Source: a virus
DNA length: 64,000 bases
IMG/VR virus record: IMGVR_UViG_3300010399_000035
Location: 1-64,000 of that record
Reading direction: 5' to 3' (one strand)
Within the stretch, counting starts at the first letter, position 1, and every line of letters begins with the position of its first letter. Positions 1 to 13,459 of the stretch are shown here, one piece after another. Under the pieces are notes generated by a model. It saw only the letters and a list, made by a program, of their open reading frames with translations, was not told where the DNA came from and searched no databases. The position numbers and the translations under genes are program-made.

Positions 1-245
1 ACGAGAGTTTCGAATCGGACGAGGTTGCACGAACCGGAATGGTGCCGCTGCCATCGCCCGAAGAAAAGGTAGTTGGAGGCCACTGCTGCGTCGTTGCTGG
101 ATATCGTACCGACTGGCGAACTTTCAAGGTTCGCAACTCGTGGGGTGCCGATTGGGGTCGTCAAGGCTACTGCCATATCCCCTTCGAGTATTTACTCAAC
201 AACGATTTGGCGTCGGATTTCTGGGTCGTAAGAATCGTTAAATAG
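1..245 (+). CDS. papain-like (C1) cysteine peptidase, 3' part only
   Basis: The gene is cut by the left edge of the window; the reading frame is open from base 3 to the TAG at 243-245. The visible 81 residues hold the C-terminal half of a C1-family peptidase: a His in GGHCCVVAGY that fits the catalytic histidine, then NSWGADWGRQGY, which matches the Asn-Ser-Trp-Gly active-site block of papain-type enzymes. The catalytic cysteine would lie outside the window. It sits directly upstream of the terminase genes, so it is probably phage-encoded. A role in virion processing or host attack is inference only. Confidence 0.75.
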   Translation, partial: ESFESDEVARTGMVPLPSPEEKVVGGHCCVVAGYRTDWRTFKVRNSWGADWGRQGYCHIPFEYLLNNDLASDFWVVRIVK

Positions 246-2258: not shown

Positions 2259-2543
2259 ATGGGCGGGGTGGACTCGTTCGGCAATCCGGTTGGCCCTGGG
2301 TATCCCTTCGAAGCCCACGTGGAACCACCCGGACCCGTCGCTGTAGATCCAGATACTCTGATTGATGGCACCGGGGAACGGATACCTGCACGCTCTCCAG
2401 AAAACGCGGGGCTTTCGCCAGCCGCAATCGGCACGATAGCGGCGCTAACCTTGCCACTCGTAGCAATCGTTTATATCACGGTTTTCGTGAAACTGTTTAC
2501 TTGGATGCTTATTGCGTTTACAGGACTGCGTGTGGTTCTCTAG
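2259..2543 (+). CDS. small membrane protein
   Basis: A 94-residue protein with a polar, Pro/Gly-rich N-terminal half and a long hydrophobic C-terminal segment (about residues 55-94, one or two membrane passes). The linker ARSPENAGLSP contains a degenerate copy of the dispersed palindromic repeat (2388-2410). It lies between terminase and portal genes and overlaps the upstream extension of the portal frame. No family was recognised. A holin or other membrane role cannot be told from sequence. Confidence 0.5.
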   Translation: MGGVDSFGNPVGPGYPFEAHVEPPGPVAVDPDTLIDGTGERIPARSPENAGLSPAAIGTIAALTLPLVAIVYITVFVKLFTWMLIAFTGLRVVL

Positions 2544-2568
2544 GCGCCTATACATATACCACTACCTC

Positions 2569-4608
2569 ATGGGCTTCCTCTCACGCGCACTCACCCAACT
2601 TGGCAACGAAATTAAGGCTAACGTAAAAGTACCGTTCTCCATCTACGGCTCCTTGGGCCAAGGCGACGCGGGGATGGGCTATACCTCCTCGCGGGACATA
2701 GGCTACCTCTTCACCACGAACCCAGGAGCGCAGTACGACTACCTGACAGCTGCTGGTAATCTAGCCGAGAACTCCGTGGTAGCGGCGGCTAGCGAAGCTA
2801 TAGCTCGTGCATTGCCGGATGCACCCCCAATCCTGGAAGTCAAGAACAAGAAGGGCAAATGGGAATCCGCTGGGGACCACGAAGTATTGGACTTCCTTGG
2901 TTGGCCCAACGGCGCTCCCGACAAGGACGTTCGCGGGTACTCCGCAGCCCACCTTTGGGCGGCTACCATCCGCTCCGAGTATACGAACGGTAATGGCTTC
3001 TGGCGACTGGTGGTGGCCCGCGATGGCACTCCCCTTGAAGCCTGGTGGGAACCGTTCATGTCGCCCCGCTACAATAAGACGGAGTTCATCCAAGACTACG
3101 TGATTTACGTGGATGGCAAGCCCTACTACTTGCCAGTCGAACAAGTAGTCCACTTCCGCTTAGCGCTGAACCCATACAACTCGCGCTGGGGCTACACCCC
3201 ACTGTATACGGCTGTACGCCACGTAGACGGCGACAACCGAGCAGCCACGTTCCATACCGCGCTGCTCCGAAACGGAGCAGTGGGTTCGTACAGCGTATCG
3301 CTCAACGACTCCGCTGACTATGCCAAGGCGGGTATCACGCCCAAGCAATTCGACGCGACCTTAGCCAAGTGGGAGAAGCGACTACGTGGCGAGGGTGCGG
3401 GGCGAATGATCTCCAGTTCGCTGCCAGTGAAGATTGATAAGTTGGACTATTCGCCCAACGACCTGATGCTGGATAAGTTGGTGGCCTACTATGAATCCAG
3501 GATTTGCGCCGTGTTGGGCATCCCAGCGATGGTGATTGGCATATCTTCTGGAGACAGTACCAAGACCTATTCGAACTACGAAGAAGCACTGAAGGACTTC
3601 TGGCAGCGGACGATCAAGCCGCTTAACGGACTGCATGCTTCGGAGTTGGGAGCGCAGTTACTACCGCTGTTCGGCCTTAGCCCATCCGAGTATCGTATTA
3701 ACTGGGACTACAGCAACGTATCCGCTCTACAAGAATCCGTGGACGCAGTGCATACGCGGGCGCGAGCCAACTGGCAAGCAGACGGCATCACCCTGAACGA
3801 GTTCCGAGGCCACATCGGCGAAGAGACGAAACCGGAATTCGAGGATGTGTGGTACACCAACCAAGGTCCGAAGGAGATAAGTTCCTTCGACCCAAACGAC
3901 CCATCCAACCAGCCGCCCACACCCACCCCAACCCCACTCCCAAGCGGAGCATCCTCTCCAGAAGATGGGCCAACAACTCAAACTGACGAGGAGCAGTTGG
4001 CTGCGTTAGATAAGGGCGCGACGAAGTCGGAAGACGAACCACGCGACGAACATGGTAGGTGGACTTCGGAAGGCGACGACTCCACCACTCCTACTGAAGT
4101 CATAGCGCCACGCCCCGATACCAACCAGCCAACTTCCCGCTCCGAACTCTCCAAGTTGAACCACAAAGTCTCCACGAGGGAGAAGCAGCAATACGCGGAG
4201 CAGAACGAAGTCGACTTGGCGAAGCATCTAGGTGGATACTCCCTGGAAGATAACGAGCCGCCGGACATCATCGTACCGAATAAGTCCGGTAAGGGTCACC
4301 AGCCTATAGAGCTCAAGACGATGCTGGACAACGACCGCGATCGCATTACGTTGCATGCGGATTCCCTCGCTCGCAAGCAGCAGTATGCACAGGATAACAA
4401 AACGACGTTCCATACGGTGGTATTGGACCACCGCGATCGGTTCGCTGGAGGCGTGAACGCCCACCAGCACTCCGGGCACGAGATCTACTATCGACGGGGG
4501 CTAGGCAGCTACAAGCTGTCTGCAATGTACAAGGTGAAGGACCACGCCGAGTTGAACAAGCTAATCCATATGAGCAACAGCAAACTTCCGCTAGGAGCGC
4601 GACCATGA
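2569..4608 (+). CDS. portal protein fused to a nuclease-like C-terminal domain
   Basis: A 679-residue protein. The first about 445 residues read as an HK97-type portal (MGFLSRALTQLG start; APPILEVKNKKGKW, VVHFRLALNPYN and AVLGIPAMVIGI regions), the dodecameric ring through which DNA enters. A Pro-rich linker follows, with an in-frame repeat copy (SGASSPEDGPT, DNA 3944-3971), then the acidic motif DEPRDEHGRWTSEG (about residues 489-502) and a further about 175 residues. That last part has PPDIIV...HQPIELKTML, a D...(E)xK pattern like PD-(D/E)XK nucleases. ATG 2569 is preferred over a TTG at 2512. The stop overlaps the next start (ATGA). The nuclease assignment is an inference from a short motif. 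Confidence 0.85.
   Translation: MGFLSRALTQLGNEIKANVKVPFSIYGSLGQGDAGMGYTSSRDIGYLFTTNPGAQYDYLTAAGNLAENSVVAAASEAIARALPDAPPILEVKNKKGKWESAGDHEVLDFLGWPNGAPDKDVRGYSAAHLWAATIRSEYTNGNGFWRLVVARDGTPLEAWWEPFMSPRYNKTEFIQDYVIYVDGKPYYLPVEQVVHFRLALNPYNSRWGYTPLYTAVRHVDGDNRAATFHTALLRNGAVGSYSVSLNDSADYAKAGITPKQFDATLAKWEKRLRGEGAGRMISSSLPVKIDKLDYSPNDLMLDKLVAYYESRICAVLGIPAMVIGISSGDSTKTYSNYEEALKDFWQRTIKPLNGLHASELGAQLLPLFGLSPSEYRINWDYSNVSALQESVDAVHTRARANWQADGITLNEFRGHIGEETKPEFEDVWYTNQGPKEISSFDPNDPSNQPPTPTPTPLPSGASSPEDGPTTQTDEEQLAALDKGATKSEDEPRDEHGRWTSEGDDSTTPTEVIAPRPDTNQPTSRSELSKLNHKVSTREKQQYAEQNEVDLAKHLGGYSLEDNEPPDIIVPNKSGKGHQPIELKTMLDNDRDRITLHADSLARKQQYAQDNKTTFHTVVLDHRDRFAGGVNAHQHSGHEIYYRRGLGSYKLSAMYKVKDHAELNKLIHMSNSKLPLGARP
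3944..3971 (+). repeat. palindromic element, half unit, inside portal gene
   Basis: GCGGAG, CA, then TCCTCTCCAGAAGATGGGCC. It is read in frame as SGASSPEDGP within the portal linker, between the structural part and the RD-GRWT motif. Confidence 0.85.
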
Positions 4609-5789
4609 CTTACGAAGCATATCTCAACGGCGAGTATGCCGGTCCCGCTGCTACGGTTAAGGGATGGGGGAACTTTGGTAGGTGGACAAGATGCTTGCCA
4701 GAAGACCAGTACCCAACGCTTAGCGAACTAGAGAAAAGTGGACGCATATCGAACGCCCATCTTCTGGCAGGAGAGCTCCGCCAGGGCATGCAGCAATTCC
4801 CGCCCCGCGAAGCGGTGCGGTCCACGGCGGAAGGATTGCTGGGATATGTAGGGGATGCCAGCGAAGGCGCGGTGTTGGAGATTAGCGATGGGACGGCGGA
4901 TGATGCGGACAACTCCGATCCAGGAGAGACTAAATCCGTAGATGACGAACCAAGGGACGAACGAGGCAGGTGGACGAGTGCTGGGTCCGACCAAGAAAAT
5001 AGAGTTTCTGAATTTTCTGCTGAGCAAGGAGGAAAACACTATGACTCTATAGTACTTCCACCTAGGACGGACGGCCCTAATGTGAAGTATACTGGTCCGG
5101 GCGAGTTCGACTATGAGCTAAAGACAGAGGATGGGAGTGATAGGCTAGCTTCCAACTATAGAGCTATATACCCGGACGAGCCTCACACAGTCAGAGATAT
5201 AACATGGCCTCAGATTTACGGAAAAGGTGGTGGGGCGGTAGATACTAGTCCAGAGAACCCAAGGGTCCCGGAACAAGTATTTAAGTTTTGGGCTACTAGC
5301 GGATTTCCTGTAAACCAGAAGAATGGTATTAACCCCCACCATCATCTAATTCGTGCTGCAGCCGATAGAATACTAGGAATTCATTCTACGTCTCCAGACC
5401 CAAAAGATTTTGGCAAGACCCTAAAGCCTGAGGAATACGATAACTTGGCTAGGAAACTGATAGAAGGTATCAAACAATCACCTGCCGAGCAACCTACTCT
5501 ATGGCGTGGTATAGGCTCTGACCAACTTAAGGCACTAGAGTCGGCTAGTCCTGGAGACGAAGTACAGTGGTCTCTCGCATCTACGAGCAGGGATCCGAAT
5601 ATAGCTTCTACGTACTCTACTTCAGGTATATTGAGAATAAAGTCCGGATCTAAGGGCATAGCAGTCAGAAGTCACTACCCACAGGATCAAGAAGTGATCT
5701 CCGGAGGCAGATATAAGATTCTTGGGTTCTCGAAAACGAGAGACGGAGTTACTGTAGTGGATGTAGAGCAGACAGGAGTTCATCAGTGA
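4605..5789 (+). CDS. ADP-ribosyltransferase with virion-type N-terminal module
   Basis: A 394-residue protein. The N-terminal about 110 residues are of unknown fold. The motif DEPRDERGRWTSAG is at residues about 114-127. The C-terminal third has the arginine-type ADP-ribosyltransferase signature: R in TLWRGIGS, the STS block in WSLASTSRDP, and a catalytic-loop glutamate in PQDQEVISGG. It would transfer ADP-ribose from NAD to a host target. The first residue of the usual ExE is Asp here (DQE), so target specificity is unclear. ATG overlaps the portal stop (ATGA). Codon use in 4980-5780 is more AT-rich than in the neighbours, which suggests later acquisition. Tailed phages such as T4 inject similar enzymes with their DNA. 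Confidence 0.8.
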   Translation: MTYEAYLNGEYAGPAATVKGWGNFGRWTRCLPEDQYPTLSELEKSGRISNAHLLAGELRQGMQQFPPREAVRSTAEGLLGYVGDASEGAVLEISDGTADDADNSDPGETKSVDDEPRDERGRWTSAGSDQENRVSEFSAEQGGKHYDSIVLPPRTDGPNVKYTGPGEFDYELKTEDGSDRLASNYRAIYPDEPHTVRDITWPQIYGKGGGAVDTSPENPRVPEQVFKFWATSGFPVNQKNGINPHHHLIRAAADRILGIHSTSPDPKDFGKTLKPEEYDNLARKLIEGIKQSPAEQPTLWRGIGSDQLKALESASPGDEVQWSLASTSRDPNIASTYSTSGILRIKSGSKGIAVRSHYPQDQEVISGGRYKILGFSKTRDGVTVVDVEQTGVHQ

Positions 5790-8281
5790 TAATCAGTCTC
5801 TCTGGTCTAGATAGCAGACAGCGGATTCCCGTAGTTCCGTTACCATCAATGGAGTTGAAGTCCTTCAACGGCTACTCCTACGCCTCCACGCAGGTGAATC
5901 TCCCCGAACCACTCGCAAGCCAAATCACGGATTGGGCCGCAGCCAATATCCCTGCCGATTCGCTGCACCCCGAATCCCAGGGTCAAGACGTGCCCCACAT
6001 CACTGTAAAGTACGGAATATTGGATGACTCGCCAGCGAGTTCGGAGGCGGCATTGAAGTTTACGGGTCCACTACAGGCTACGCTCCGCGCAATGAAGGTA
6101 TTCCGCTTTTCGCCTAACTATGACGTCCTCGTAATCGCTGTAGACAGTCCTGACCTGCACAATGCGAACAGCACGTTGAAGGCGTCTGTACCAACCGTAG
6201 ATACGTTCCCCACCTACGATCCCCACGTGACGGTGGCTTACGTTAAGAAGGGCGAAGGGGAGGCGTTCGATGGGAATGCCGAGTTTTCTGGGCAGGATCT
6301 GCAGTTCGGTAGCGTGATATTCAGTTCGAAGGATGGGCAGGAGTATGAAATCCCGTTGAATGGATACGACTTCTATTCGCCATACTCCTCCGATCCAGAA
6401 GATGCGCCTGACTTCCAATTAGATCCGACAGCAGTAAAGTACTCCGACGATGAGCCCCGCGATGACTCTGGTAAGTGGACCGCTGGAGGCTCCGAACCGA
6501 CCCACGAAGTAGACCCAAACTCCGCGCCGTATCCCAGCAACATAGCTATACAATCGGCGTTCGACGGAGGTCTCTCCAAGGATGAGTACCTCGAGCTAGC
6601 TAAAGATACGCCACGGCTACGCAACGAAGCCCAAGACTACGAAACCTTCGAGAAGGCGAATGATGATTGGGTGCGGAACGCTTCTGGAGAAGCGAAGACG
6701 GAAGTGGCCCATATTCTGGCGACGAACTCAGCGGTACGGACGCTATCCCTCCACGACGCCTGGCAGCAATCTGCTAAAGCGGGAGAGAAGTTCAGCGATT
6801 GGTTGGATCGGCCCCAAGAATTGCACCGCTACGGGTCGTTGTCCGGAGATCTAGTGTCCTTCGCGGCATCGGAAGCCAGAGCGAAGGATGCCTCTGGAGG
6901 CGAAGGCACTGGTGGCCACTCCACGGTACGGTTGGCTCCGAAGTATTGGTTGGGAGCGGGGCGGGGAATGGGCGAAGTGTACGTTGATCCCTCCATTCTT
7001 CGCAATGCTTCCGAGACCAAATCATGGGAAGACGAACCCCGCGACGAATCCGGCAAGTGGACCACTGGCGATGCAGACACCGACCGCAAGCTAGCCGCAC
7101 TGCGTTGGGAGGGGCGCAAGCTACGCGAGACGCTGAAGACTCACGAAGCGAAGCTGAAGGACGCCCGCTCACGCGGCGACGAAGCTGCCATTAAGGAGCA
7201 CGACGCCAACCACCGCCGCACCGCTATAGAACTGCGCAAGCTACGCGAGCAACACCATCAGTTGGCAGGCAAGAAAGAATATAAGAATCCGTACGAGAAA
7301 CGAGCGACGGACAAGGGTAGCGGAGACTCGCTCCAGAAGAGTGGGCCAACTTCGAAGCCAGAGGCCCAAGCAGTCAGGGAGCAAATACTCTCTGAATACA
7401 AATCTGTTTCGGATAATCTAGAGAAGCTTGGATCTGATGTCGTGTCTCACCAAATGGCCCAAGGTATCCTCACTGCTCAGATCAAGCAGATGCAAGATGA
7501 GAACGACGAAACTCCAAAGTATTCAGTTAGCCAAATGCTGGATCGTCTTCGTCCACTACAGGACAAGCGAAGCGAACACTATGAACAAATGACGGTCGCT
7601 CAAGGTAAGATAAACGAACTGAACAAGAGCTTAACCGATAAGCTTCGACAGCACTTGTATCAACCAGTATCAGTCAATGACTACAAACCGTATATCAGCA
7701 ACGAACTGCGGCCAAAAGAGCACCACATACAAGCAGGATTAGATTCATTTCACAGACTGGCTGGGGATTCTATACCCGCTCCTAAAGGCATTGCGTTCCA
7801 GAAAACCAAAGGTAAGGAACGATCCAACGCTACAGCCGCTCAAGTTTCTCTGGATCCCAACGCTGAAGAGTCTGTAGTAGTGCACGAACTCGGTCATGTT
7901 CTGGAGAGCAACAATCCTCAGTTACACGAAGCAGCGGTGAAGTTCCTGGCGAAGCGGACGGCTGGGGAGAAGTTGGAGTCGCTAAAGAAAGTTACAGGAT
8001 TCCGATACGGAGCGCAAGAGAAGACGAGGAAAGATAAGTTCATCAACGCCTACATGGGCAAAGACTATACTCCTCAGTATTTTCAGGAATTACGCAAACA
8101 AGTACCCAAAGGCGAAATCCCTGTCGAGTACTATACAGACCCGAAAATAAACCAATATACCGAAATCATCTCTATGGGTCTGGAGTATATGCATTCCCAG
8201 CCTCATGTTCTGGCAGAGAAGGATCCGGAGTACTTTGACTTCATGTATAACGTATTAAGGGGCAATTACGATGCTGTTTGA
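5786..8281 (+). CDS. 2H phosphoesterase / zinc metallopeptidase multidomain protein
   Basis: An 831-residue mosaic. Residues 25-200 form a 2H (LigT-like) phosphoesterase with both HxT motifs (HITVKYG at 71, HVTVAYV at 147). Two acidic motifs follow, DEPRDDSGKWTAGG (about 222) and DEPRDESGKWTTG (about 417), with an unknown domain between them. A Lys/Glu-rich coiled coil spans about 430-640. The C-terminal domain carries HELGH (H700, E701, H704), the zinc-binding helix of gluzincin/metzincin peptidases. GTG 5786 overlaps the upstream stop (GTGA); an ATG at 5849 is also possible. The enzymatic domains look like cargo delivered with the virion; this is inference. Confidence 0.75.
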   Translation: MIISLSGLDSRQRIPVVPLPSMELKSFNGYSYASTQVNLPEPLASQITDWAAANIPADSLHPESQGQDVPHITVKYGILDDSPASSEAALKFTGPLQATLRAMKVFRFSPNYDVLVIAVDSPDLHNANSTLKASVPTVDTFPTYDPHVTVAYVKKGEGEAFDGNAEFSGQDLQFGSVIFSSKDGQEYEIPLNGYDFYSPYSSDPEDAPDFQLDPTAVKYSDDEPRDDSGKWTAGGSEPTHEVDPNSAPYPSNIAIQSAFDGGLSKDEYLELAKDTPRLRNEAQDYETFEKANDDWVRNASGEAKTEVAHILATNSAVRTLSLHDAWQQSAKAGEKFSDWLDRPQELHRYGSLSGDLVSFAASEARAKDASGGEGTGGHSTVRLAPKYWLGAGRGMGEVYVDPSILRNASETKSWEDEPRDESGKWTTGDADTDRKLAALRWEGRKLRETLKTHEAKLKDARSRGDEAAIKEHDANHRRTAIELRKLREQHHQLAGKKEYKNPYEKRATDKGSGDSLQKSGPTSKPEAQAVREQILSEYKSVSDNLEKLGSDVVSHQMAQGILTAQIKQMQDENDETPKYSVSQMLDRLRPLQDKRSEHYEQMTVAQGKINELNKSLTDKLRQHLYQPVSVNDYKPYISNELRPKEHHIQAGLDSFHRLAGDSIPAPKGIAFQKTKGKERSNATAAQVSLDPNAEESVVVHELGHVLESNNPQLHEAAVKFLAKRTAGEKLESLKKVTGFRYGAQEKTRKDKFINAYMGKDYTPQYFQELRKQVPKGEIPVEYYTDPKINQYTEIISMGLEYMHSQPHVLAEKDPEYFDFMYNVLRGNYDAV

Positions 8282-8322
8282 TTTGCCGAGCGTTGGCGGA
8301 CGGATTCGCGAAGGGGTTCATT

Positions 8323-8745
8323 ATGTCAGTTAAAGTACGCTTGGCCTCCGGCGAAGAAGCGATCGTGGACGGCTACGAATGGGTGGCGGCGGATCCCTCC
8401 TTGCGGCGAATGCTGAACTCCTTCCGCCAGCCATACGGCCCCTCCGCGAGCGACCCCGACCCGGACTATTCGCTGGCGGAAGCAGCCGTGAAGTTGTTCG
8501 GAGGGGAGATTATTAGTGCAGACCCACCGCTGGACCCACCCCAATATGGTAGCACTAGCGCCGAAGGCGCTGGTGTGGGGAGCGGAGCACTCTCCCCAGA
8601 GAACGGTCAAATAAAATCCACATCTCCTGACAGCGACGTACCCGACTTCACGGATCCCAACGTCCAGAAAAGTACCGCATCCGAATCCTATGCGCAAGCG
8701 TCTGCACCACTTAAAGAGCTCCTCGCGGCGGACGTGGTGGACTAG
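8323..8745 (+). CDS. hypothetical head-region protein
   Basis: 140 residues. The N-terminal half is compact (SVKVRLASGEEAIVDGYEW). The C-terminal half is disordered, rich in Ser/Pro/Asp, and contains the repeat-derived GSGALSPENGQ. ATG 8323 follows a purine-rich GAAGGGG; an upstream TTG at 8278 overlaps the previous stop. No family was recognised. Its place between the effector genes and the gp7-like gene suggests a structural or accessory head role. Confidence 0.5.
   Translation: MSVKVRLASGEEAIVDGYEWVAADPSLRRMLNSFRQPYGPSASDPDPDYSLAEAAVKLFGGEIISADPPLDPPQYGSTSAEGAGVGSGALSPENGQIKSTSPDSDVPDFTDPNVQKSTASESYAQASAPLKELLAADVVD
8582..8608 (+). repeat. palindromic element, half unit, in coding region
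   Basis: GCGGAG, CA, CTCTCCCCAGAGAACGG. It is read in frame as SGALSPENGQ in the hypothetical head-region protein. Confidence 0.75.
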
Positions 8746-9383: not shown

Positions 9384-12050
9384 ATGACTGCTACCGCTTC
9401 GCTATACGAACCAACCGACTTGGCGCTGAAGGAATACGGCTTCGGTGGCAGTGCCACCTACGGAGGCCAATCAGCTTCCGACAAAGCTGCACGGAGTGAA
9501 TTTATGAAAACTGCCGCCGATGTCCTTATTAGCTACGGATCCGAACTCAAAGCCGAAGGAACTGACGCCAATGGCGACTTCCACTTCGGCGGCTACTTGG
9601 TGCTGTTCGATAGCCACGATGTCTCGCGTCAGCGGGATAAGTATCTGAAGTCTACCGATTACGACTTCGAGGATGGGGACAAGACCACCATCTATTTCCA
9701 TCACGGATTGGACGAGACCCTCAAGGCCACCAAGCTAGGCACCGGCAAGTTGTACATGAAGGATGCTGGCGTGTGGATGGATGGAATCATCAAGGCCCGC
9801 ACGGACTACCTCGCGAAGCACGTAGACAAGATCAAGGACGGGATTAAAGGCGGGGTATTTGGGCTGAGTAGCGGCGTCCCCGCTCATCTAGTGGAGCGTA
9901 AGGCCGTCCCCGCTGGCCACGAAGTGCTGACCTGGCCTCTAGGCAAGGATGCTTCCATTACGCACATCCCCGCCGAGCCCAAAACGATGTGCTTTTCGCT
10001 CAAATCACTTATGGAAGAGGAGAGCGGAGAAGCTCTCCCAGAAGATGGCCCATTTTCTGGAGCGGATGACCTCGAACTGAAATACTCCGACGATGAAGAG
10101 AGGGATGATCATGGTCGGTGGACTTCAGGTAGCGATGAGGCCGACCAAGTACATGGTGCTACCAGCGAGGCTCGTTCAGCTACTCAAGCTGCGATAGGGT
10201 CGACCTCCGCTATTAAGGCGTCGGCAGGACGTGCGGCTACGCAATCTATGTCTGCATTAGGTGCGACTACCTCTGGCGAGGCCGAAGAAGCCCACAATAA
10301 GGCTGCTCGCTATCATTTATCCACGGCAGCCATGCATACGGAGCATGCCAAAGCGCTAAATGCTTCTGGTTCCGCAGACTCTGCGAAAGAAGCCCAGGAG
10401 CATACAGCTGCAGCTACTTTACACACAACAGCAGCTACTATGCATCGAGCCATGGCTCGTAAGGCTGGGCAGAACGCATTCAGTAATATTAACCTGGCGG
10501 AAGATGTGGTGGGCCGAGCCTTAAGAGGCAACTACGGCTTGTCTACCAAGACTGATGCGGTTAAGTCAGCCCATCGACTGATGCGAGGAGCTCAGATTAT
10601 AGTTCCTGAATCCCATCCCGCTAGACCTCACATAGACGACGCCAAGGAGTCTCTAGAGAAAGCTGTTCACTCAAACGGAGAGCGGAGGGACGCTCATTTG
10701 AGGGAAGCCAAGCAGCACATCGCCAAGGCGTACGAAAAAGGTGTGGCTGCCCCATTCAATAGATATGTTGATCCGGCGTCGGGAGTAGCTAAGAAGGATG
10801 ATGGGTCAGATGACCTCGAACTGAAGTACTCCGATGACCAGGAACGCGACGATCGTGGCCGCTGGACAGCTGGTGGGGCGAGCGATGCAAAGGACGCATC
10901 TGACAGCGCTCACGAAGCTTCGACGGGAGCCCAAGGCCCACTTTCGTCCAAGGCGTGGCATAGCTCCGATAAGGCGAAGACCTTCGCTGCCATGGCAGGT
11001 AAAGCAACCTCAGATAACAGTCGCGAAGCTTACCATGGCAATGCAGCAGCCTATCACGAAGAAGCTAGCAAGACGCATAGCGACGCTGCAGTTCGCGCTG
11101 GAGCTCAAGGCGACCATGAAAGCCAGACTGCCCACTCGGACGCCGCTGCTAAGCACACCACCGCAGCCGCAATGCACCGTGGTATGGCGAAGGCGGCTGC
11201 CGTGAGCCAAAGCTACGAGGTAAACCCTCATAGTTTGGTTAATAACACGGCAGAGCAGCTATCCTCCGTTCACGCAGGTAGGGAGACAATCCATTCGTTT
11301 GCCCAGAGGTTGAAGCAGTCTCATGATAGACTCTCGCAAGCCGTTGATCATGTCAGTACCGACCATCCAGCATATGCACACTTAGTGATGGCTAAGGAGT
11401 CTACGAACAAGGCTCTCCACTCCCGAGGGGACACTCGGAAGCAGCACGTGGCAGAAGCTATGAACCATGTGCGGAATGCTCAGATGAGTGGTATCGGTCG
11501 AGCAGCCAAATCAGAGGACGACGACAACGAAGGTGCATTCAAGTCCGAAAGCATAATTACTCCTGACGTTATACAGGTTCTGGCGGATGGTCGGCATGTA
11601 GGCCTCCGCTTCCAGGACCACCCAAAAGTGGTGCTTGCAGCCATGAAGGGATTCGTACATCGCTTGTTCGATTGGCACGTGGATCGAACTGCGAGTCGTA
11701 AGTCGGGTCAGGTATACTCCGGTGATAACTGGGATATGCACGACACCATTTGCAACGGAATGGCGCAGATGGTGCAGCAGTACCGTAATCACCTGGACGA
11801 CAACTGCCCGCCTGGACGTAAACCGTGCAAGGTCCCTGTAGTGCAACTAGGTACCGCAGCCCCACTGTCGTGGTCGGAATCGGGTGGAGCGTTAGGTACC
11901 GACCAATTCAAGGCTGATGCAGCCGACGCCAGCGCCGACGCGCTGGAACGGATGGAAGCTGAGTTGCTCGAACGTCAAGCCGCCTTCGCCCGCCTTCGGG
12001 CCGATGGGTTGCTGATCCAAGAGCGAATGGTTGCAGCTGCGGTTGACTAG
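9384..12050 (+). CDS. prohead protease with duplicated helical modules and scaffold-like tail
   Basis: 888 residues. Residues about 50-210 are an HK97-type (S78) prohead protease: candidate catalytic His in YFHHGLD (106/107), Ser in FGLSSGV (162/163), and ITHIPAEPKT, the usual end of the domain. An in-frame repeat copy (SGEALPEDGPFSG) leads into two tandem modules. Each begins DDLELKYSDD-x-ERDD-x-GRWT (about 230 and 478) and continues with an Ala/His-rich helical repeat (HTTAATMHRAMARKAG versus HTTAAAMHRGMAKAAA). The C-terminus is a charged coiled coil fitting a scaffold or delta domain. The protease would mature the capsid and possibly cut at the acidic motifs. Confidence 0.85.
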   Translation: MTATASLYEPTDLALKEYGFGGSATYGGQSASDKAARSEFMKTAADVLISYGSELKAEGTDANGDFHFGGYLVLFDSHDVSRQRDKYLKSTDYDFEDGDKTTIYFHHGLDETLKATKLGTGKLYMKDAGVWMDGIIKARTDYLAKHVDKIKDGIKGGVFGLSSGVPAHLVERKAVPAGHEVLTWPLGKDASITHIPAEPKTMCFSLKSLMEEESGEALPEDGPFSGADDLELKYSDDEERDDHGRWTSGSDEADQVHGATSEARSATQAAIGSTSAIKASAGRAATQSMSALGATTSGEAEEAHNKAARYHLSTAAMHTEHAKALNASGSADSAKEAQEHTAAATLHTTAATMHRAMARKAGQNAFSNINLAEDVVGRALRGNYGLSTKTDAVKSAHRLMRGAQIIVPESHPARPHIDDAKESLEKAVHSNGERRDAHLREAKQHIAKAYEKGVAAPFNRYVDPASGVAKKDDGSDDLELKYSDDQERDDRGRWTAGGASDAKDASDSAHEASTGAQGPLSSKAWHSSDKAKTFAAMAGKATSDNSREAYHGNAAAYHEEASKTHSDAAVRAGAQGDHESQTAHSDAAAKHTTAAAMHRGMAKAAAVSQSYEVNPHSLVNNTAEQLSSVHAGRETIHSFAQRLKQSHDRLSQAVDHVSTDHPAYAHLVMAKESTNKALHSRGDTRKQHVAEAMNHVRNAQMSGIGRAAKSEDDDNEGAFKSESIITPDVIQVLADGRHVGLRFQDHPKVVLAAMKGFVHRLFDWHVDRTASRKSGQVYSGDNWDMHDTICNGMAQMVQQYRNHLDDNCPPGRKPCKVPVVQLGTAAPLSWSESGGALGTDQFKADAADASADALERMEAELLERQAAFARLRADGLLIQERMVAAAVD
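10024..10066 (+). repeat. palindromic element, near-full unit, inside prohead protease gene
   Basis: Left arm GCGGAG, AA, GCTCTCCCAGAAGA; centre TGGCCCA; degraded right arm TTTTCTGGAGCGG. It is translated as SGEALPEDGPFSGAD between the protease domain and the first GRWT module. Confidence 0.85.
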
Positions 12051-12052
12051 TA

Positions 12053-12076
12053 GTTCAACGAACTAGTTCGTTGAAC
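12053..12076. promoter_or_regulatory. 24-bp perfect palindrome before the capsid gene
   Basis: GTTCAACGAACT followed at once by its exact reverse complement AGTTCGTTGAAC, in the gap between the protease stop and the capsid ATG. It could be an mRNA hairpin (processing or stability) or a protein operator. It contains the TTG at 12071, which argues against that codon being the capsid start. Confidence 0.65.
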
Positions 12077-12106
12077 AGTAGCATAGTAAAGAGGAATGCA
12101 AGCACA

Positions 12107-13459
12107 ATGCCAACTTTAAAAGAGAAAAATGACCAACTCGCGAAGCTGCGAGCGGATCACCAGAAGCGGTTCGAGGCGTTCGACGCCGAAACCAACAGCG
12201 GACGCAAGTCTGCTATCCTGCAGGAAATCAACCGGGCTGAAGTGGACATCAAGTCCCTCAGCGACGAAGTGGCGCAGGAAGTCCAAGTCGTCGAAATGAA
12301 GCGGCGCAACGAGCAGGAGATGAAGGGTCTGCGGATTCCCGCTGGCGTCGGGGTGCCCTTCCCCGAGCGTGGCGGCAAGGACGGCGAGCTTCATGGCGAG
12401 CGCATGAGCGCCATCAAGTCCGTCGGTCAGTCCCTGATCGACGACAAGTCGGACATCATGCACAAGTTCCGCGAGTACAACGAGAAGTACGACGTGGTCT
12501 ACGAGTACCCGTTCCGCTCCGTGGGTGAATGGAAGGCTGCGATCCAGGCGGAAATGAAGACCACCCTCACTGAGAGCGGCTTCACCTCATACGATCGTCT
12601 GCCGAACATCATCACCCTCGGCGCTCAGGTGCCGATGGTCCGCGACTTGATCCCTCAGGGCCAGACCACCGCGATCACCATCCGCTACCCACGTGAAGTA
12701 TCGTTCACCAATGGTGCGACGAACGTCGCGGAAGGTGGCCAGAAGCCGGAAGCCGCATTCAACCTCGCTGAGGTGGATGCTCCCGTTCGGAAGATCGCCG
12801 TCGTGGCTCGTGTCACCGACGAAATGTTCGCTGACTTCCCGGCTGTCCGCGACTATATCAACATGCGGCTCCCCTTCATGGTGGAGCAGCAGGAAGATAA
12901 CCAGATCCTGAACGGCAACGGCACCAGCCCGAACCTGCAGGGCATTCTGGGCACCACTGGTGTGCTGTCCGGCGGCGCGTTGAACCAGTCGGCTGATCCG
13001 CAGAACGACCCGATCGTGAACGTGATCCTGCGTGCGATCACGCGCATCCAGGCTGAGTCCTTCTTCCAGCCTACGGGTATCGTGATCAACCCGTTCGACT
13101 GGGAGAACGTCCGCCTGATGCGTTCCGGAACCGGCGATGCTGCCGGTGGCGCGAACCGTGGGCTGTACCTGTTCGGTAACCCGGACGGTATGGGGATTGA
13201 CTCCATCTGGGGTCTGCCTGTGGTGAAGACCGTATACTGCCCTCGCGGTAAGGTACTGGTCGGCGCGTTCTCCTTGGGAGCACAGATCTTCCGTCGCGAA
13301 GGCATCACCATGCAGATGTCGAACTCCGATGGTAACGACTTCTCTTACAACCGCGTTGCTTTGCGGGTGGAAGAGCGTCTCGCTTTGGCTGTGTACCGCC
13401 CGAGCGCCTTCGGCGTCTGCACCCTGCATTCGAGCGGCGAAGCTTCCAGCAGCGCATAA
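12107..13459 (+). CDS. major capsid protein, HK97 fold
   Basis: 450 residues. The N-terminal about 75 residues are a charged coiled coil (scaffold-like delta domain, normally removed by the prohead protease). The HK97-type body follows, with VTDEMFADFPAVRDYINMRLP, a Q-E-D-N-Q-I-L-N-G-N-G block (typical E-loop/spine-helix region) and a C-terminal IWGLPVVKT...VLVGAF...ALRVEERLALAVYRPSAF, very typical of the P-domain end. ATG 12107 has AAAGAGG upstream. Base use is more GC-rich and regular than in the neighbours, as expected for a highly expressed gene. Confidence 0.95.
   Translation: MPTLKEKNDQLAKLRADHQKRFEAFDAETNSGRKSAILQEINRAEVDIKSLSDEVAQEVQVVEMKRRNEQEMKGLRIPAGVGVPFPERGGKDGELHGERMSAIKSVGQSLIDDKSDIMHKFREYNEKYDVVYEYPFRSVGEWKAAIQAEMKTTLTESGFTSYDRLPNIITLGAQVPMVRDLIPQGQTTAITIRYPREVSFTNGATNVAEGGQKPEAAFNLAEVDAPVRKIAVVARVTDEMFADFPAVRDYINMRLPFMVEQQEDNQILNGNGTSPNLQGILGTTGVLSGGALNQSADPQNDPIVNVILRAITRIQAESFFQPTGIVINPFDWENVRLMRSGTGDAAGGANRGLYLFGNPDGMGIDSIWGLPVVKTVYCPRGKVLVGAFSLGAQIFRREGITMQMSNSDGNDFSYNRVALRVEERLALAVYRPSAFGVCTLHSSGEASSSA

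What the first reader, a model, noticed from the sequence alone, without database searches (positions are those of the whole stretch)
5786..8281. 2H phosphoesterase fused to a zinc peptidase through two tag motifs
An RNA/nucleotide-type 2H domain and an HELGH peptidase in one polypeptide, separated by tag motifs and a coiled coil, is an odd domain mix. 2H enzymes can cleave cyclic signalling nucleotides used in anti-phage defence, so an anti-defence role on injection is possible.
Basis: partly seen in the sequence, partly recalled or inferred. Interest (0 to 1): 0.65.

Follow-up and report, generated by a model that had tools for sequence, protein, structure and literature searches.

The report
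Phage head cargo with tagged enzyme modules
A soil phage carries, inside its head-assembly gene block, a multi-part protein whose first enzyme is related to known phage enzymes that destroy bacterial alarm molecules and whose last is a protein-cutter; a short repeated peptide separates the parts and marks where they are swapped between relatives, so it looks like packaged, injected anti-defence cargo, although nothing has been tested in the laboratory.

Summary
ORF 5786-8281 (831 aa) holds a 2H phosphoesterase domain, two copies of a tag (consensus xxDEPRDExG[RK]WT), a long coiled coil and a C-terminal HELGH peptidase. Both HxT motifs are invariant in 65 diverse relatives; HExxH is kept in every complete peptidase relative. 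The 2H domain's closest experimentally characterised relatives by sequence profile are anti-CBASS Acb1 enzymes, but it scores below the curated Acb1 cut-off and seems to lack the Acb1 lid residues. It is therefore a sister type, not proven Acb1.

The mix fits a published class, 'polyvalent proteins' (Iyer 2017), whose authors already proposed the defence-nucleotide role for 2H domains. The less familiar part is the tag. All six copies in the 85-kb record lie in four genes of the head block. A close relative lacks exactly the module between two tags. In other phages the same tag separates portal, prohead-protease and major-capsid domains from Acb1, ADP-ribosyltransferase, zeta-toxin, topoisomerase IB and other domains. 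I found no description of it in the open literature. Best reading: head-packaged, injected effector cassettes joined by processable linkers. Packaging, cleavage and activity are inferred.

The parts
5786..8281 (+). The finding's ORF, 831 aa; GTG start coupled to the stop of ORF 4605-5789 (GTGA), SD AGGAG
5852..6340 (+). 2H phosphoesterase domain (residues ~23-185)
   Evidence: PF13563 above cut-off; AF2 pLDDT 91.5; Foldseek hits all 2H
5996..6007 (+). First catalytic motif HITV (H71, T73 of the ORF)
   Evidence: invariant in 65/65 relatives
6224..6235 (+). Second catalytic motif HVTV (H147, T149 of the ORF)
   Evidence: invariant in 65/65 relatives
6431..6490 (+). Tag copy AVKYSDDEPRDDSGKWTAGG
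6491..7006 (+). Middle module (residues ~236-407), unidentified; exactly the segment missing in relative L004. ART-like motifs by eye only
   Evidence: absence in L004; no family, no relatives
7013..7069 (+). Tag copy ETKSWEDEPRDESGKWTTG
7073..7705 (+). Long coiled coil / helical stalk
   Evidence: AF2 helices, pLDDT mostly 85-97
7709..8278 (+). C-terminal zincin-type peptidase domain (residues 642-831)
   Evidence: PHROG 33618 1e-28; 209 related viral contigs; C-terminal in nearly all
7883..7897 (+). HELGH zinc-binding motif; third ligand Glu of TEIISMG at 8162-8164
   Evidence: invariant columns H473 E474 H477 E566 of A5
4605..5789 (+). Upstream ORF: N-domain + tag (4953-4975 core) + putative ADP-ribosyltransferase (R-S-E motifs by eye); fused to the 2H protein in relative L004
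   Evidence: weak PHROG 832 match
2512..4608 (+). Portal protein (PF04860) with tag (4042-4064 core) and a C-terminal extra module
9384..12050 (+). Prohead-protease-like protein (weak S78 match) with two tags (10101-10123, 10845-10867 cores) and helical scaffold-like segments
12071..13459 (+). HK97-type major capsid protein
   Evidence: PF05065 6.7e-36; HK97 gp5 structures

Best explanation
The ORF is a head-packaged polyvalent effector protein made of interchangeable cassettes. Its parts are a 2H phosphodiesterase, an unidentified module, and a coiled coil with a zinc peptidase, joined by a conserved peptide tag. The protein is made with the head proteins, enters the procapsid, is cut into modules near the tags (by the prohead protease, by its own zincin, or by both), and is ejected with the DNA. 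The 2H enzyme then most likely degrades defence nucleotides (CBASS-type cyclic di- or trinucleotides or 2',5'-linked oligonucleotides). The zincin does the processing or attacks a host protein. Shown: anatomy, conserved active sites, genomic position, module exchange at tags, and Acb1 domains among tag-linked proteins elsewhere. Inferred: packaging, cleavage, injection and substrate.
For: Active sites are conserved across 65 2H and about 100 zincin relatives. The gene lies between portal and capsid. All tags of the record lie in the head block. Close relative L004 lacks precisely the middle module, and one tag there aligns to both flanking tags of the window (L004 12001-12050). L029 fuses three tags to prohead protease and major capsid protein in one 1938-aa ORF. 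L098 is portal + Acb1 (6e-44) + tag; L073 is tag + Acb1 (6e-35) + tag. Portal proteins with an Acb1 domain occur in cultured phages such as phiPSA1. 2H profile against PDB: Acb1 first at 4.7e-6. The zincin is related to phage P1 DdrB, which is found in the P1 head (PMC9024508), and to MuF-type minor head proteins.
Against: No proteomics and no activity. The 2H domain is below the Acb1 cut-off and lacks recognisable Acb1 E141/W147 lid residues. Its best structural matches include RNA-end phosphodiesterases and Usb1. The zincin model had no Foldseek match. Cleavage at or near the tag has no direct support.
Confidence: 0.55

Rival explanations
1. The same injected polyprotein, but the 2H domain acts on RNA (2',3'-cyclic phosphate processing or RNase like Usb1), for instance repairing or destroying tRNA in a defence conflict, and not on cyclic defence nucleotides.
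For: PF13563 scores higher than Acb1 (65/65 against 62/65 members, and better E for the window domain); Foldseek places Usb1, CPDases and LigT alongside Acb1. Iyer 2017 gave this as one of two options.
Against: Best PDB profile matches are Acb1, ahead of LigT-type proteins; true Acb1 domains occupy equivalent tag-linked and portal-linked positions. Iyer 2017 never saw these 2H domains with RNA ligases.
Confidence: 0.3
2. The protein is mainly structural or morphogenetic (a minor head protein): the zincin matures head proteins, the tag is an assembly or protease site, and the 2H domain is a passenger with little role in infection.
For: The zincin is usually the C-terminal domain of minor-head-like proteins; tags sit in portal and protease.
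Against: 2H catalytic residues are strictly conserved; tag-linked modules are mostly effector-type enzymes and are swapped between close relatives.
Confidence: 0.12
3. The tags are only recombination scars or flexible linkers with no function of their own.
For: They mark exact module exchange points, and a Gly/Ser-rich stretch follows the motif.
Against: The tag is nearly invariant as a peptide (R, D, G, W, T near 100%, partly fixed by the search pattern) while its codons follow gene background at the invariant Gly (p 0.17; some other positions deviate modestly). Its upstream [FY][DN]P element was not part of the search pattern, yet recurs.
Confidence: 0.2

Closest known systems
Polyvalent proteins of phages (Iyer et al. 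2017, PMC5512222), including P1 DdrB and N4 virion RNA polymerase
   Same: Several unrelated enzyme domains in one polypeptide; zincin peptidase as hub domain; 2H, ART and GNAT partners; encoded with head genes; predicted to be packaged and injected.
   Different: Modules here are separated by a conserved tag shared with portal and prohead protease. The words 'linker' and 'low-complexity' do not occur in that paper, and no tag of this kind was found in the passages read.
Acb1 anti-CBASS phosphodiesterase (T4 gp57B; PF23474; PDB 7t26/7t27, PMC9117128)
   Same: 2H fold, HxT/HxT tetrad, aromatic residues at positions aligning with Y12, W74 and F107.
   Different: Below the curated Acb1 score; no clear E141 or W147 lid; embedded in a virion-region polyprotein whereas T4 Acb1 is a free protein.
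Portal proteins with an Acb1 domain (e.g. Pseudomonas phage phiPSA1 gp44, Rhizobium phage RHEph04 portal)
   Same: An Acb1-type 2H domain on a head structural protein.
   Different: phiPSA1 carries it as a C-terminal extension of the portal; I did not check these cultured phages for the tag.
Tunturiibacter phage Tunturi_5 gp321 (PP885688; annotated MutT/NUDIX hydrolase)
   Same: Related 2H domain plus an HExxH peptidase-like region in one protein lying among head-tail genes.
   Different: Domain order peptidase first; ART-like and GNAT regions; no tag.
MuF-type minor head proteins with C-terminal zincin (Flavobacterium phage pippi8-1 gp28, Bacillus phage vB_BboS-125)
   Same: Same C-terminal zincin family.
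   Different: No 2H domain and no tag in these two.

Membership tests
Polyvalent proteins | Two or more enzyme domains of unrelated activity in one polypeptide | tested here: met
   2H and zincin with invariant HExxH+E
Polyvalent proteins | Genomic context of a portal-terminase phage head module | tested here: met
   Between portal 2512-4608 and protease/MCP 9384-13459
Polyvalent proteins | Packaged in the virion and transferred with DNA | not testable with these tools
   Needs virion proteomics; L029 fusion to protease and MCP is indirect support
2H phosphoesterases (PF13563) | Score above curated cut-off and two HxT/S motifs | tested here: met
   31.4 vs 27 bits; HITV/HVTV, 65/65 invariant
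Acb1 (PF23474) | Score above curated cut-off | tested here: not met
   20.4 vs 27 bits whole protein; 24.6 for the domain alone; relative L146 passes with 39.1
Acb1 (PF23474) | HxT/HxT tetrad | tested here: met
   alignment with T4-type gp57B proteins
Acb1 (PF23474) | Base-stacking aromatics Y12, W74, F107 | tested here: met
   Y, F, F at aligned positions (residue roles from PMC9117128); the third varies H/Y/F in the wider clade
Acb1 (PF23474) | E141 contact and W147 C-terminal lid | tested here: inconclusive
   No Glu/Trp in register in the alignment, but the C-terminal part aligns poorly
Acb1 (PF23474) | Hydrolysis of CBASS cyclic di/trinucleotides | not testable with these tools
   needs enzyme assay
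Zincin-like metallopeptidases of polyvalent proteins | HExxH and a downstream helix with a Glu ligand | tested here: met
   A5 invariant columns H473, E474, H477, E566
Zincin-like metallopeptidases of polyvalent proteins | Fold match to a solved zincin | tested here: inconclusive
   No PDB match with E<=0.001 for the 604-aa model and none by sequence profile

The most novel reading that the evidence does not exclude
The DEPRDExG[RK]WT tag is a general cargo-cassette marker of (mostly uncultivated) tailed phages: a peptide recognised during head assembly, by the prohead protease or as a packaging signal, on which phages hang interchangeable effectors including Acb1-type enzymes. Anti-CBASS activity would then be delivered with the DNA, before any phage gene is expressed.
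Probability: 0.3. Interest if true: 0.75.

Novelty: new variant of a known kind. Interest (0 to 1): 0.52.

Why it matters
If the reading holds, some phages deliver signal-degrading enzymes in the particle itself, ahead of host nucleotide signalling. Known Acb1 of T4 is made after infection (own knowledge). A short peptide that marks cargo cassettes would also let effectors be found systematically in phage dark matter, and would turn the question of how phages choose and release packaged proteins into a testable one.

Tried and rejected
Middle module as ADP-ribosyltransferase: motifs look right by eye, but no family match, no relatives and a low-confidence, helical model; left unidentified. E-x-K|S before the tag as an HK97-like cleavage site: fits this phage (ETK|S, ATK|S; HK97-type capsids are cut before a Ser), but the logo of 154 tags from other phages shows no conserved E-x-K; kept only as a guess for this phage. 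Tag as DNA site: rejected, because codon choice at the invariant Gly follows gene background. Tag in cultured phages by tblastn: two short, weak hits (E 4 and 3), a Nocardia phage capsid maturation protease and an F-form in a Helicobacter prophage HI1409-family protein. Literature searches for tag strings found nothing. PADLOC: no matches. 'Prohead protease' label of Roseobacter phage DSS3P8 gp129 (150 aa): probably a mislabelled Acb1-type protein. Host of the window's phage: not determined; nearest capsids in cultured phages are about 30% identical.

Full report
WHAT IS THERE. The window is the first 64 kb of an 85,035-bp virus record. The ORF at 5786-8281 sits in a head-assembly block: terminase 530-2203, portal 2512-4608, ORF 4605-5789, the finding, two small ORFs, a prohead-protease-like gene 9384-12050 and an HK97-type capsid 12071-13459. 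The start is GTG at 5786 with AGGAG upstream, overlapping the previous stop. Reading from the N-terminus, the 831-aa protein has a 2H domain, a tag, a ~170-aa unidentified module, a second tag, a long coiled coil and an HELGH peptidase.

THE 2H DOMAIN. Pfam 2_5_RNA_ligase2 passes its cut-off; Acb1 is hit below its cut-off. One scan with a six-sequence profile found relatives in 254 viral contigs. In 65 non-redundant ones H49, T51, H125, T127 (segment numbering), G55, A129, Y130 and K132 are invariant. Many of these relatives lie inside very large polyproteins of 1,000-4,000 aa. Against solved structures the profile finds Acb1 first (4.7e-6), then other 2H proteins. The AlphaFold2 model is confident (91.5) and matches 2H enzymes of several activities: penguinpox cGAMP phosphodiesterase, Usb1, RNA cyclic phosphodiesterases, Acb1. 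In an alignment with T4-type gp57B proteins the catalytic tetrad and the aromatic positions are kept, while the Acb1 lid Glu/Trp are not visible (residue roles from PMC9117128). So: a sister type to Acb1, with an undecided substrate.

THE PEPTIDASE. A profile scan found 209 related viral contigs. The domain ends within about 10 residues of the C-terminus in nearly all of them, with HExxH present in 100 of 110 script hits; the other 10 are fragments or partial hits. Relatives include MuF-type head proteins and, weakly, P1 DdrB. DdrB is found in the P1 head by mass spectrometry (PMC9024508) and was reported to be processed before packaging (PMC5512222). No solved structure matched by sequence or by model.

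THE TAG. The core pattern occurs six times in the window with none expected by chance, and nowhere else in the 85-kb record: portal 1, ORF 4605 1, this ORF 2, protease 2. A collection scan found 106 DNA stretches with the tag in IMG/VR. In 154 non-redundant copies the consensus is [FY][DN]PDEPRDExG[RK]WT followed by Gly-rich sequence (the core is partly fixed by the search pattern, the flanks are not). Successive tags are 101-815 residues apart, never closer, and codons at the invariant Gly follow gene background, so it is a peptide motif spaced by whole modules. Tag ORFs match MuF, portal, prohead protease, Acb1, zeta toxin, topoisomerase IB, ADP-ribosyltransferase, RelA/SpoT and GNAT families. 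In the multi-tag proteins examined one by one, tags lie outside the recognised Pfam domains. L029 joins three tags to prohead protease and major capsid protein in one ORF. L098 is portal-Acb1-tag. L073 is tag-Acb1-tag.

MODULE EXCHANGE. The close relative L004/L005 has one 883-aa ORF in place of the window's two. DNA alignment shows matching 2H and tag, no middle module, then matching tag and coil; L004 12001-12050 (the tag) aligns to both flanking copies of the window. This is what exchange by recombination between tags would leave. The module upstream of 2H also differs, with the break just after the tag of ORF 4605 (protein match ends at residue 125).

HOW IT PROBABLY WORKS. Position, fusion to head proteins in relatives and the P1/N4 precedents argue for packaging and injection. 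The tag at protease-scaffold, portal-cargo and cargo-cargo junctions suggests a processed linker or packaging signal. The zincin could do the processing (Iyer 2017) or be an effector. The 2H enzyme most likely removes defence nucleotides, with RNA as the main alternative. None of these steps was measured.

KNOWN AND NEW. The combination belongs to a published class, and the idea that its 2H domains may degrade defence nucleotides was stated in 2017 (PMC5512222). Acb1-bearing portal proteins exist in cultured phages, though three literature searches for virion or portal Acb1 gave no paper describing them (open-access only). The tag as a shared cassette boundary between head proteins and effectors is, as far as these tools reach, undescribed.

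Noticed in passing
L004 1379-4549 and window 3-242: A papain-like protease gene upstream of the terminase in L004/L005 appears to carry two intein-like insertions, one at the active-site Cys (QNALGC/CFSGETEV...VHNC) and one at the His motif (GGH/CFTGDTKV...VHNC). The window's homologue (C-terminal part, frame 3) lacks the second insertion and reads GGHCCVVAGYRTD directly.
   Followed up: partly
L004 6445-8082; L004 14384-14600: Two further cargo-like segments of the relative carry a different recurrent motif (GRWVTIDGTHVFIKDG, GWRTIDGRHVYFGDDG), possibly a second family of head-protein tags; the first lies in a 545-aa protein with an ADP-ribosyltransferase match (1.5e-7) inserted between terminase and portal.
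   Followed up: partly
window 3943-3976, 8581-8614, 10023-10056: A second short repeat (SGxxxPEDG-like peptide) shared by portal, ORF 8278-8745 and protease, upstream of the tag in two of the three.
   Followed up: no
L029 2142-7955 (-): A 1938-aa ORF of three tagged segments, DUF7178, prohead protease and major capsid protein: a head polyprotein of unusual size.
   Followed up: partly
L281 3989-4441 (Roseobacter phage DSS3P8 gp129): Annotated as prohead protease but only 150 aa and covered by an Acb1 match; probably a mislabelled Acb1-type protein.
   Followed up: partly
L139, L141, L183 and similar: Many free-standing ~190-aa 2H proteins of the same clade in IMG/VR contigs, a possible pool of uncharacterised nucleotide phosphodiesterases.
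   Followed up: no
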